NCBI RefSeq assembly: GCF_000801955.1 | Contig: NZ_JSZO01000012.1 | Location: forward strand, 1-64,000 | From: Ralstonia sp. A12 | GTDB taxonomy: Bacteria > Pseudomonadota > Gammaproteobacteria > Burkholderiales > Burkholderiaceae | Direction: 5' to 3' | DNA: 64,000 nt | In this document: piece after piece, positions 39,731 through 42,137 of the stretch | How the letters are laid out: every line of letters begins with the position of its first letter | How positions within the stretch are numbered: the first letter of the stretch is position 1 | Position numbers and translations under genes: made by a program | The notes under the pieces: generated by a model | Told to the model about the DNA's origin: nothing | Database searches by the model: none | The model's input: the letters and a program-made list of their open reading frames with translations, nothing else

Positions 39731-39997
39731 ATGAAACAACAAGCCATGATCGCCGCCGCCCTGGGTAGCCTGCTCGCACTGGGCGCCCTGTCGACCCCGG
39801 TGCAGGCCGCAGACCCAGCCGGCAAGGAGAAGTGTTACGGCGTGGCCAAGGCCGGTCAGAACGACTGCGCCAGCCCGGGCAGCGCCCACGCCTGTGCCGG
39901 CCAATCGAAGATCGACAAGGACCCGATGTCATGGAAGTTCGTGCCGGCCGGCACCTGCGCGCAGATGGGCGGCACGATGCAGCCGATGTCCAAGTAA
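39731..39997 (+). CDS. bufA1: Bufferin precursor peptide (BufA1/GigP, DUF2282)
   Basis: The 88-residue precursor has a Sec signal peptide (about 1-26, ending PVQA|ADPAG). The DUF2282 core has four cysteines at 35, 46, 55 and 76, in EKCYGVAKAGQNDC, HACAGQ and GTCAQMGG. In bufferins (gigP in Cupriavidus), cysteines are converted by the DUF692/DUF2063 enzyme pair into thiooxazole-type groups that bind copper. The mature peptide is periplasmic and protects against copper. ATG follows AAGGAGA. It leads a four-gene operon. Whether every Cys is modified here is not visible from sequence. Confidence 0.92.
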   Translation: MKQQAMIAAALGSLLALGALSTPVQAADPAGKEKCYGVAKAGQNDCASPGSAHACAGQSKIDKDPMSWKFVPAGTCAQMGGTMQPMSK

Positions 39998-40025
39998 GCG
40001 TCAGCCGACCGACCGGGTGACCGCC

Positions 40026-40895
40026 ATGCAGACGACTCTGCCGATGTGCGCGGGTGCAGGCCTGCGCGCCCCGCACTTTCCTGCTCTGCTTCACGGGGAA
40101 GCCCGCTTCCCCTGGGTGGAAGTGCACAGCGAGAACTACCTGTATGGCGGCCCGGCCCGCGCTGCACTGCTGGCCGCACGGGCGCATCAGCCCGTGAGCC
40201 TGCACGGCGTGGGCATGGGGCTCGGCAATGCCGATGGGCTGGACGTTGACCACGTGCGCGCCATTGCCGCGCTGGCCGATGCCGTGGCACCCAACGCCAT
40301 TTCCGAGCACCTGTGCTTCAACCGCAGCGGTGCCCAGGTCGTCAACGACCTGCTGCCCCTGCCCTATTCCCGCGAGTCGCTCGACCTTGTGTGCGCCAAT
40401 GTCATGCGCGCACAGGACATCCTCAAGCGGCCGCTGCTGATTGAAAACATCGCCGCGTATATCGATTGCCGCGCGCTGGTGGATGCCGATGAGGCTGTCT
40501 CCGAAGGCGCGTTTCTCACCGCACTCGCGCGCCGCACCGGCTGCGGCATCTTGCTGGACCTCAACAACCTCTACGTCAACAGCGTCAACCACGGTGTGAC
40601 GGTTGAATCGGTGCTGGCCGACATCGACCCGGCGCTGGTAGGCGAGATTCACCTGGCCGGATTCAGCGTGGAAGACGGCATGTTGATCGACACACACAGC
40701 GCACCGGTGCATGCGTCGGTCTGGGCGATCTACGAAGCCTGGATCGCCGCGCATGGCGCGCGCCCGACGCTCATCGAGTGGGATGCCGACATCCCGCCCG
40801 TGCAAGTGCTGCTGCAGGAAGCGGAGCGCGCCCAGATCGTCCTTGACCAGTACGCCGCTTCCACTGTCACGGAGAGCGACCATGCGCCTGCCTGA
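40026..40895 (+). CDS. bufB1: Bufferin maturase BufB (DUF692, multinuclear iron oxidase)
   Basis: The 289-residue DUF692 TIM-barrel enzyme has the metal-ligand motifs VHSENYLY, SLHGVGMGLG, ISEHLCF, LIENIAAYI, LLDLNNLYVNSVNHG, EIHLAGF, IDTHSAPV and LIEWDADIP. The family (MNIO, as in MbnB) oxidises peptide cysteines with multinuclear iron. It acts with the DUF2063 partner on the BufA1 precursor in the cytosol. It starts 28 bases after bufA1 and overlaps bufC by 14 bases. Confidence 0.94.
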   Translation: MQTTLPMCAGAGLRAPHFPALLHGEARFPWVEVHSENYLYGGPARAALLAARAHQPVSLHGVGMGLGNADGLDVDHVRAIAALADAVAPNAISEHLCFNRSGAQVVNDLLPLPYSRESLDLVCANVMRAQDILKRPLLIENIAAYIDCRALVDADEAVSEGAFLTALARRTGCGILLDLNNLYVNSVNHGVTVESVLADIDPALVGEIHLAGFSVEDGMLIDTHSAPVHASVWAIYEAWIAAHGARPTLIEWDADIPPVQVLLQEAERAQIVLDQYAASTVTESDHAPA

Positions 40896-41658
40896 CTGGG
40901 AAGCCCACTTGATCAGCACGCTCACGGCACCTGCGAGTGGTGACGCATCGCGCGGCGTGGCTGTCTATCGCAACGCGCGTCTGGCCATCCTGCGCAACAC
41001 GCTGGCCGGTGCGTATCCGGTCTGCCGAGCACTGGTTGGCGATGACTGCTTTGATGCCATCGTGCGCGACACGCTGGCAGTGCAGGACTCGACCTCTGCG
41101 AACCTGCATCGATATGGCGACGCATTGCCCGAAGTCATCGCGCAATCACCGCTGGCCGACAGCGTGCCGTATCTGGCCGACGTGGCGCGATTGGAATGGC
41201 GCGTGCACTGGGCGCACTACGCACCCGACGCACACGCTGAGGCGCTGGACGTCACCGCGCTCGGCACGCTGCTTGCGCAGCCGGCGGACACACTCCGCGC
41301 CGGTCTCGTCGACGGCGCGTGGTGCGTGGCGTCGACGTGGCCAGTGGTATCGATCTGGCGCGCCCATCAACCGGATGCAGCGATCACGCTGAGCAACATC
41401 GACCTCGACACGAGCGAGGCTGCCATCGTCACCGTGCAAGACCACCGTGTGGTCGTGCTCGATCTTGATACGAGCACCGCTGCGTTTCTCGCGGCCTGCG
41501 ATGCAACGTCGTCGCTGCAGGCGGCCCTCACACAAACACTGACTGCGCAGGCGGACTTCGACCTGACCGCTTGCCTGGTCGGCCTCTATCGCGCGGGGTT
41601 GCTCGCGCTGTCCACGCACCCGGCACCCCACAGCCCGATCCTTGGAGACACACCATGA
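40882..41658 (+). CDS. bufC1: Bufferin maturation partner BufC (DUF2063)
   Basis: The 258-residue protein has the DUF2063 N-terminal domain: MRLPDWEAHLISTLTAP, GVAVYRNARLAILRNTLAGAYPVCRALVGDDCFDAI and RYGDALPEVI. The C-terminal half is a winged-helix-like RRE domain. Such partners recruit the precursor and form a complex with the DUF692 oxidase. It is translationally coupled at both ends: a 14-base overlap with bufB and a 4-base ATGA overlap with the DoxX gene. Confidence 0.9.
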   Translation: MRLPDWEAHLISTLTAPASGDASRGVAVYRNARLAILRNTLAGAYPVCRALVGDDCFDAIVRDTLAVQDSTSANLHRYGDALPEVIAQSPLADSVPYLADVARLEWRVHWAHYAPDAHAEALDVTALGTLLAQPADTLRAGLVDGAWCVASTWPVVSIWRAHQPDAAITLSNIDLDTSEAAIVTVQDHRVVVLDLDTSTAAFLAACDATSSLQAALTQTLTAQADFDLTACLVGLYRAGLLALSTHPAPHSPILGDTP

Positions 41659-42137
41659 ACACCACGCTTGCCCCGCTCACGCGCATCCGCGCCACGCTCG
41701 ACCGCTTTGCCGGCCCGCAAAGCGGGTTGTGCTCGCTCATTTTGCTGATCGCGCGGGCGTACCTCTTCTACGTATTCTTTCGCTCGGGCCTGACCAAGCT
41801 GCACGACTGGGACACCACCGTGCTGCTCTTCACCGAGGAGTACAAGGTGCCGCTGCTGCCGCCCATGCTGGCTGCGGCGCTGGGCACGTTCGGTGAGCTG
41901 GTCTTCCCCTCGCTGATGCTGATTGGCATCGTGCCGCGCTTGGCGGCGGCGGGCCTGTTCTTCGTCAACGTCGTGGCGGCGCTGTCGTATTGGGCGAGCC
42001 TGTCGGCCTCAGCCATCGAGTTCCACTTCGTATGGGGCGTGCTGATCGCGATCGTAGCGACGGTCGGGCCGGGCTGGCTGGCATTGCAGACGCTGTGGCA
42101 GCGCAAGCAAACCACCGCGCCGGGTCACGCCTATTGA
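41655..42137 (+). CDS. DoxX-family membrane protein of the bufferin operon (GigT-like)
   Basis: The 160-residue DoxX protein has four helices, with ARAYLFYVFFRSGLTKLHDWDTT and FGELVFPSLMLIGIVPRLAA as the conserved core. DoxX genes close many bufferin/gig operons; the role is unclear and may be redox or membrane-linked. ATGA overlap with bufC indicates coupling. Its end lies 83 bases before the BON lipoprotein gene. Confidence 0.9.
   Translation: MNTTLAPLTRIRATLDRFAGPQSGLCSLILLIARAYLFYVFFRSGLTKLHDWDTTVLLFTEEYKVPLLPPMLAAALGTFGELVFPSLMLIGIVPRLAAAGLFFVNVVAALSYWASLSASAIEFHFVWGVLIAIVATVGPGWLALQTLWQRKQTTAPGHAY

What the first reader, a model, noticed from the sequence alone, without database searches (positions are those of the whole stretch)
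39731..42137. Complete bufferin (gigPABT-type) operon
A DUF2282 precursor with four cysteines, a DUF692 oxidase, a DUF2063 partner and a DoxX membrane protein lie in one coupled operon. The bufA1-bufB gap is 28 bases, bufB overlaps bufC by 14 bases and bufC overlaps doxX by ATGA. Bufferins are a recently recognised class of ribosomal copper-binding peptides with thiooxazole modifications; gig operons in Cupriavidus respond to gold and copper. No sigma/anti-sigma pair sits next to it here, so its control may differ.
Basis: partly seen in the sequence, partly recalled or inferred. Interest (0 to 1): 0.75.

Follow-up and report, generated by a model that had tools for sequence, protein, structure and literature searches.

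The report
Copper-buffer peptide operon with remote sigma control
The window holds a normal operon for a small copper-binding peptide, but its switch looks like that of the cell's oxidised-methionine repair genes and is probably thrown by a regulator encoded elsewhere in the genome.

Summary
Confirmed to the base: bufA (DUF2282, four Cys), bufB (MNIO/DUF692), bufC (DUF2063) and doxX, with the stated 28-base gap and 14-base and ATGA overlaps. It is a conserved Buf1 bufferin operon (bufA in 15 of 16 Ralstonia genomes), a new member of a known kind.

No sigma gene lies nearby, yet an ECF-type promoter (TRTCAGGA-N14-CGACNAAG) stands about 100 bases before bufA in 16 of 16 Ralstonia upstream regions. 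The same promoter class precedes bufA in many other, mainly betaproteobacterial, loci; 22 of 28 sigma-linked ones encode a zinc-type (ZAS) anti-sigma with the sigma. Ralstonia has such a sigma elsewhere (16 of 16). A genome scan with the promoter also hits msrA, msrB, msrP, a DUF1223 gene and the sigma gene's own 3' end.

I predict that the bufferin belongs to an oxidant/methionine-sulfoxide repair regulon run in trans, like sigma-E/MseR of Neisseria, not to a gig/RpoQ-type system. The regulation is sequence-based only; no expression or binding was measured, and peptide modification and copper binding are inferred from family.

The parts
39603..39630 (+). predicted ECF promoter of the operon: ATCAGG-N15-CGACCAA (full site TATCAGGAATCTGTCAGTGCGACGACCAAG at 39602-39631), about 100 nt before bufA
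   Evidence: site found in 16 of 16 Ralstonia bufA upstream regions (15 genomes), spacer variable; only match of RTMAGG-N15/16-CGWCNAA in the window, both strands; only zero-mismatch match of GTRTMAGGA-N14-CGAC in the genome
39524..39550 (+). terminator-like stem that ends the upstream transcription unit
   Evidence: a similar stem is visible in the alignment of relatives
39731..39997 (+). bufA, Buf1 (DUF2282) precursor, 88 aa; signal-peptide-like N-terminus ending VQA-AD; Cys 35, 46, 55, 76
40026..40895 (+). bufB, MNIO family maturase (PF05114; NCBIfam BufB above cut-off)
   Evidence: nearest solved relative by sequence 3bww
40882..41658 (+). bufC, DUF2063 partner protein, 258 aa
   Evidence: length fits PME-type 1 partners (PMC12452194 section 18)
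41655..42137 (+). doxX membrane protein, 160 aa, four hydrophobic segments
42172..42202 (+). terminator-like stem that ends the operon

Best explanation
A Buf1 bufferin operon: BufA is made with a Sec-type signal peptide, BufBC oxidise its central cysteines to copper-chelating heterocycles, and the exported peptide buffers periplasmic copper (inferred from family). Transcription starts from an ECF promoter at 39603-39630. The most likely sigma is the TIGR02943-type ECF factor at G000:C34:159902-160492(-), held by the 70-aa zinc (ZAS) anti-sigma encoded just after it; oxidation or metal attack on the anti-sigma would free the sigma (inferred from Neisseria MseR, Haemophilus HrsE, Streptomyces RsrA). 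The bufferin would thus be made together with MsrA, MsrB and MsrP, as one envelope repair response to oxidants and perhaps copper. Shown here: gene content, promoter, its conservation, the unlinked sigma pair, the shared promoter on msr genes. Inferred: that this sigma reads the promoter, the inducing signal, the peptide chemistry.
For: The site is present in 16 of 16 Ralstonia bufA upstream regions from 15 genomes, with a variable spacer. In 77 non-Ralstonia loci, GTAA-N17/18-CGA[AC] lies in the 300 nt before bufA in 18 of 28 sigma-linked and 30 of 49 unlinked loci, against means of 0.3 and 0.6 in block shuffles and 1 and 2 on the reverse strand. 22 of the 28 sigma-linked loci encode a ZAS-motif ORF next to the sigma gene (a 23rd match, in L089, is a long ORF that I set aside by eye). 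Of 14 own ECF sigmas put in the tree only the C34 one falls in the clade holding all 22 ZAS-linked sigmas (UFBoot 93); it passes TIGR02943 and its partner passes the anti-sigma-E model. The sigma is in 16 of 16 Ralstonia. Among 49 unlinked loci the promoter goes with a TIGR02943 sigma over cut-off in the genome: 20 of 31 with promoter (slightly wider pattern), 4 of 18 without, Fisher p 0.007. Scan of the own genome: 14 hits, 4 in the reversed control, including bufA, msrA, msrB, msrP and a DUF1223 gene at 33-100 nt before the start codon; in 8 other Ralstonia the site precedes msrB in 8, msrP in 7, msrA in 4, DUF1223 in 3. Published sigma-E consensus of Neisseria is GTMAGBWTT, 12-13 nt, CGTCTAAH (PMC2893595, passages).
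Against: No expression, binding or mass-spectrometry data. 19 of 49 unlinked and 10 of 28 linked loci lack the strict promoter, and 11 of 31 unlinked loci with the promoter have no TIGR02943 sigma over cut-off (some are MAGs). The sigma gene's own upstream region has a conserved block but not this motif. Deeper nodes of the sigma tree are weak (54-68), and 6 of the 20 own sigma matches were left out of it without being examined. In Neisseria, oxidative stimuli did not alter sigma-E expression (PMC2893595, abstract passage). 92 of 146 motif hits in nine Ralstonia genomes are outside the seven recurrent sites, against 54 control hits.
Confidence: 0.75

Rival explanations
1. The operon answers to a copper-specific regulator (CopR/CusR-type response regulator or the nearby MerR) and the ECF-like boxes are incidental.
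For: A MerR-type gene (43113-43538) and a heavy-metal RND system lie just downstream; the RND genes are there in 14 of 14 other Ralstonia, the MerR gene in full in 12, in part in one and not matched in one. gig operons respond to copper (PMC10304878, PMC5413113).
Against: The MerR protein is below the CueR, ZntR and other equivalog cut-offs; a terminator-like stem, a BON gene and a reverse-strand ORF separate it from the operon; the ECF site is kept in 16 of 16 upstream regions with a drifting spacer and no sigma-70-like promoter was found in 39400-43760. I did not search for CopR/CusR boxes.
Confidence: 0.15
2. The promoter is read by another of the genome's sigma factors, not the C34 factor.
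For: Twenty sigma-70 region 2 matches in the genome, six of which were not put in the tree; only sequence clade and the in-gene site tie the C34 factor to the promoter.
Against: C34 is the only one of 14 own ECF factors in the tree that falls inside the ZAS-linked bufferin clade; no other own gene matched it at E <= 1e-20; its 3' end carries the motif in 16 of 16 Ralstonia.
Confidence: 0.15
3. A plain gig/RpoQ-NrsF (sigma-F) bufferin system whose sigma is simply elsewhere.
For: Same four gene kinds as gigPABT; the published sigma-F promoter GTAACC-N16-CGAA (PMC3511200, passages) has similar spacing.
Against: No NrsF match in the genome; the promoter has CAGGA and CGAC, not AACC and CGAA; RpoQ falls in another clade; the C. 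metallidurans gig-rpoQ gap carries the sigma-F form on both strands.
Confidence: 0.04

Closest known systems
Buf1 (DUF2282) bufferin operons (PMC12452194)
   Same: precursor with four conserved Cys and signal-peptide-like start, MNIO, DUF2063 partner, DoxX
   Different: no linked sigma or NrsF; ECF promoter of another class; candidate sigma with ZAS anti-sigma in trans
gigPABT-rpoQ-rsqA of Cupriavidus metallidurans (PMC10304878)
   Same: same four gene kinds
   Different: BufA 45%, BufB 41% identical; divergent RpoQ/RsqA; sigma-F-like TGTAACC...CGAA sites on both sides of the gap
sigma-E/MseR operon NMB2140-2145 of Neisseria meningitidis and RpoE2/HrsE of Haemophilus influenzae (PMC2893595, PMC7907618, passages)
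   Same: ECF sigma with ZAS anti-sigma, promoter GTMAG...CGTCTAA with 12-13 nt spacing (Neisseria), control of methionine sulfoxide reductase and of an operon with a DoxX-like gene; that this operon also holds precursor and MNIO genes is partly recalled (NGO1945 as DUF2063 partner: PMC12452194 section 18)
   Different: there the precursor is of the EGKCG/oxazolin type (partly recalled) and, in Neisseria, the sigma sits inside the operon; here the precursor is Buf1 and the sigma is unlinked

Membership tests
Buf1 bufferin operon | DUF2282 precursor with four conserved Cys | tested here: met
   84.9 bits against 22.4; four Cys invariant in 28 rows
Buf1 bufferin operon | Sec signal peptide on the precursor | tested here: inconclusive
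   hydrophobic stretch from about residue 7 and VQA-AD site by inspection and hydropathy only; no signal-peptide predictor was available
Buf1 bufferin operon | MNIO maturase of the BufB kind | tested here: met
   NF050167 314.3 bits, cut-off 310
Buf1 bufferin operon | PME-type 1 partner: DUF2063 plus RRE fold | tested here: inconclusive
Buf1 bufferin operon | thiooxazole formation and copper binding | not testable with these tools
   needs mass spectrometry
Buf2 (BufA2) | NF050166 score over cut-off | tested here: not met
   31.1 of 60 bits
gig/RpoQ (sigma-F/NrsF) controlled operon | NrsF anti-sigma and GTAACC-N16-CGAA promoter | tested here: not met
   no NrsF match in the genome; other promoter class
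sigma-E/MseR-type (ZAS) regulon | TIGR02943-type sigma with C-x23-26-H-x3-C-x2-C anti-sigma in the genome | tested here: met
   247.1 of 162.2 and 66.7 of 50 bits; C-x25-H-x3-C-x2-C in the partner
sigma-E/MseR-type (ZAS) regulon | GTMAG-type -35 and CGTCTAA-type -10 with 12-13 nt spacer | tested here: inconclusive
   same layout and spacing but not the exact consensus: ATCAGGAAT-N12-CGACCAA in the window, GTCAGGAAC-N12-CGACNAA in 12 of the 16 regions, against GTMAGBWTT and CGTCTAAH
sigma-E/MseR-type (ZAS) regulon | transcription depends on that sigma | not testable with these tools
   needs a reporter or deletion

The most novel reading that the evidence does not exclude
Bufferins of betaproteobacteria are effectors of a ZAS-anti-sigma oxidant response (ECF, MseR-like) that couples copper buffering to methionine-sulfoxide repair, linked or in trans. 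The sigma gene carries a copy of its own promoter inside the codons of its DNA-binding helix-turn-helix, placed to drive the anti-sigma. In Ralstonia the change TGTAAG to TGTCAG across the regulon coincides with Lys to Gln in that helix, because the same AAG/CAG codon is both promoter box and protein.
Probability: 0.5. Interest if true: 0.8.

Novelty: new variant of a known kind. Interest (0 to 1): 0.6.

Why it matters
Bufferins are presented as copper-stress peptides. If this operon and the msr genes share one oxidant-sensing switch, bufferins belong to envelope repair after oxidant attack, and the link known from Neisseria and Haemophilus (peptide operon plus msr under a ZAS system) becomes more general. 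It also says where to look for the regulator when none is next door, and gives a promoter that can be tested directly.

Tried and rejected
Deletion of a linked sigma gene in this lineage: the roughly 590 bp more between hns and bufA in 12 other Ralstonia hold a Lys/Ala-rich ORF, not a sigma. A leader ORF before bufA: looked at by eye only; frames did not seem kept. RNA family: two matches below gathering score, judged chance. A first promoter pattern with the wrong spacer (N15) missed the site; corrected. Regular expressions for ECF genes found none and then 3; a like expression found only 7 of 20 own sigma loci; replaced by an HMM. The second MNIO locus scores low for the promoter (10.7 against 25 or more for the sites used to build the matrix). 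Viral contigs: no relative of BufB. Near-identical plasmid DNA: none; protein relatives of BufA lie in 274 plasmid records, none with a place covering 80% of the query. BufC fold: not finished.

The motif scan beyond Ralstonia was weak for bufA itself, since the strict pattern misses several of those promoters: 19 hits against 7 controls in six genomes, three assigned (msrA of Chitinimonas prasina; the in-sigma site before the anti-sigma and a Buf2 precursor of Aquabacterium), 16 not.

Selection to keep in mind: of 132 motif hits in eight relatives I fetched 37 regions, chosen by eye for likeness to the own-genome sites; 30 of the 37 held one of the five genes, 7 did not. Box invariance in rows found by pattern is partly by construction. 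Of the 14 own-genome hits, six precede a recognised gene, one is the in-sigma site and seven are unassigned; only the gene products of interest were run against families. The relatives added to the sigma tree were found with the C34 sigma as query. The recoding null and the Fisher test treat related loci as independent. The flanks searched for linked sigma genes are short in some loci, so some 'unlinked' loci may be linked.
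Full report
WHAT IS THERE. BufB passes the NCBIfam bufferin-maturase model (314.3 bits, cut-off 310); BufA is below the BufA2 model (31.1 of 60), as expected for a Buf1 precursor; BufC and DoxX score below the cut-offs of the HvfC and HvfX models. Cys 35, 46, 55 and 76 are invariant in 28 aligned BufA sequences. Terminator-like stems lie before and after the unit. The genome has one DUF2282 match and two MNIO matches.

HOW COMMON. The genus is Ralstonia: contigs of 'same genus' genomes G003, G014 and G015 have the lengths of the records of L051, L052 and L053, two titled Ralstonia and one 'Burkholderiaceae bacterium 26'. 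bufA is in 15 of 16 Ralstonia genomes, the sixteenth being 88% complete. In 14 of 14 fetched relatives bufABC-doxX-BON is followed by the cusCBA-like genes. One relative (G005) has a second bufA alone, carrying the same upstream block; another (G002) has a second, divergent buf locus with an ECF gene beside it (L050).

CONTROL: THE PROMOTER. An HMM built from 14 ECF sigmas of the own genome finds no sigma gene in the window or in the 14 main Ralstonia loci, but finds one in 28 of 80 named bufA loci (the 80 are the best of 559 and include 3 Ralstonia and a few non-betaproteobacteria). A word count upstream of 21 sigma-linked bufA genes gave GTAA-N17-CGAC in 9. In 77 non-Ralstonia loci GTAA-N17/18-CGA[AC] is found in 18 of 28 sigma-linked and 30 of 49 unlinked loci, against block-shuffle means of 0.3 and 0.6. 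In 48 loci picked because they had the site or a sigma, 43 gave 44 sites; the neighbouring T (41 of 44) and G (42 of 44), which were not in the pattern, are also kept. All 16 Ralstonia bufA upstream regions (15 genomes) match TRTCAGGA-N14-CGACNAAG with a variable spacer. The Neisseria sigma-E consensus in PMC2893595 (passages read) is GTMAGBWTT, 12-13 nt, CGTCTAAH: the same layout and spacing, though not the same letters throughout.

CONTROL: THE SIGMA. 22 of 28 linked loci have a small ORF with C-x20-29-H-x3-C-x2-C next to the sigma gene (one further match, in L089, set aside by eye), the ZAS type of anti-sigma. The bufferin landscape paper (PMC12452194; sections 4, 14, 18 and passages read) speaks of NrsF; 'ZAS', 'zinc' and 'MseR' do not occur in its main text. 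The own genome has such a pair on contig C34: sigma 247.1 bits on TIGR02943 (cut-off 162.2), partner 66.7 on the anti-sigma-E model (cut-off 50). Orthologues of the sigma are in 16 of 16 Ralstonia. In a 59-leaf tree it is the only one of 14 own ECF factors in the clade with all 22 ZAS-linked sigmas (UFBoot 93), while C. metallidurans RpoQ is outside; 6 of the 20 own sigma matches were not put in. Among 49 unlinked loci, 20 of 31 with the promoter and 4 of 18 without have a TIGR02943 sigma over cut-off in their genome (p 0.007).

CONTROL: THE REGULON. RTMAGG-N15/16-CGWCNAA has 14 hits in the own genome against 4 for the reversed pattern. Six lie 33 to 100 nt before a recognised gene: bufA, msrB, msrP, msrA, a DUF1223 protein and a 123-aa protein with no Pfam match; one is in the sigma gene; seven are unassigned. 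MsrA, MsrB and MsrP pass their NCBIfam cut-offs. In eight other Ralstonia (132 hits, 50 controls) the site is before msrB in 8, the 123-aa gene in 8, msrP in 7, msrA in 4 and DUF1223 in 3 (37 of 132 hits were fetched, chosen by eye). By position it is also before bufA in 8 of 8 and in the sigma gene in 8 of 8. Together 54 of 146 hits in nine genomes are explained; 92 are not, and the controls total 54. Outside the genus it stands before msrA in Chitinimonas prasina and before a Buf2 precursor (NF050166 96 bits, cut-off 60) in Aquabacterium sp. A7-Y.

A PROMOTER INSIDE THE SIGMA GENE. The same motif occurs near the 3' end of the sigma gene, in the codons for region 4 (C[K/Q]ELxITPTN), shortly before the anti-sigma gene. 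It is there in 16 of 16 Ralstonia and 17 of 22 ZAS-linked sigma genes (a slightly looser pattern); random synonymous recoding with pooled codon usage gave a mean of 1.8 and at most 7 in 500 runs. In 14 aligned Ralstonia genes the six codons of the two boxes do not vary, whereas 72% of the gene's 161 amino-acid-invariant codons do. Ralstonia has CAG (Gln) in 16 of 16 and TGTCAG or TATCAG promoters; 20 of the 22 ZAS-linked sigmas have Lys there, as read from the printed peptides, and 43 of 44 bufA promoters have the A of TGTAAG. Two loci outside Ralstonia also have TGTCAG promoters (L079; L023); their sigma codons were not looked at. I read the site as a promoter for the anti-sigma; coding constraint on a conserved helix is the plain alternative, and the genes are related, so the null is generous.

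MECHANISM. Most likely the ZAS anti-sigma loses zinc or forms disulfides under oxidant (or copper) stress, the sigma is freed, and bufABC-doxX and the msr genes rise together; bufferin then binds loosened periplasmic copper while Msr enzymes repair oxidised methionine. The signal is inferred from Neisseria, Haemophilus and Streptomyces systems as described in PMC2893595 and PMC7907618 (passages read). In PMC2893595 oxidative stimuli did not alter sigma-E expression, which counts against a simple oxidant signal.

WHAT IS NEW. In print: bufferin operons and linked sigma/NrsF pairs (PMC12452194), copper-induced gig (PMC10304878 section 22 and passages; PMC7563307 passages, which call gig RpoQ-controlled where PMC10304878 finds no proof; PMC5413113 sections 13 and 14), and the control of msr genes and a DoxX-bearing operon by ZAS systems in Neisseria and Haemophilus. 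PMC12668002 (section 6 and passages read) says literature connects these clusters to oxidative stress and metals. I did not find a ZAS-type system on Buf1 operons, or trans control, in searches (no papers; listings; only some of the papers opened, in passages or sections). These cover open-licence papers only; the original bufferin report did not show up in the listings and I did not look it up.

Noticed in passing
L034 (G000:C23:36000-46500) 2897-6914: Second MNIO of the genome (BufB model 334.9 bits) with a DUF2063 partner follows a 692-aa Ferritin-like (PF12902) ORF with 15 Cys, ten of them in residues 480-614: a possible large MNIO substrate. A CusF-like ORF (by eye) and an RND pump with GAMVDA lie beside it.
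   Followed up: partly
window 43703-49357 and 15747-18917: The RND pumps of the window have DFGVIVDAA and DFGIIVDSS where the pump of L034 has GAMVDAA; from recalled motif classes the downstream 'cus' system may export divalent cations rather than copper.
   Followed up: partly
L040 7451-7714: A second bufA copy in relative G005 stands alone with the duplicated promoter block; no match to bufB or the other window genes in the 18 kb fetched.
   Followed up: partly
L036-L039, L041-L048, hns-bufA gap: A Lys/Ala-rich ORF of about 170-210 aa lies between hns and bufA in 12 relatives and is missing in the window and in G013.
   Followed up: no
L293 531-1037 and L275/L290: In G005 the motif stands before a DUF417 gene (RclC model 43.5 of 275 bits); in G013 and G005 also before an ORF that by eye resembles a serine beta-lactamase, not tested.
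   Followed up: no
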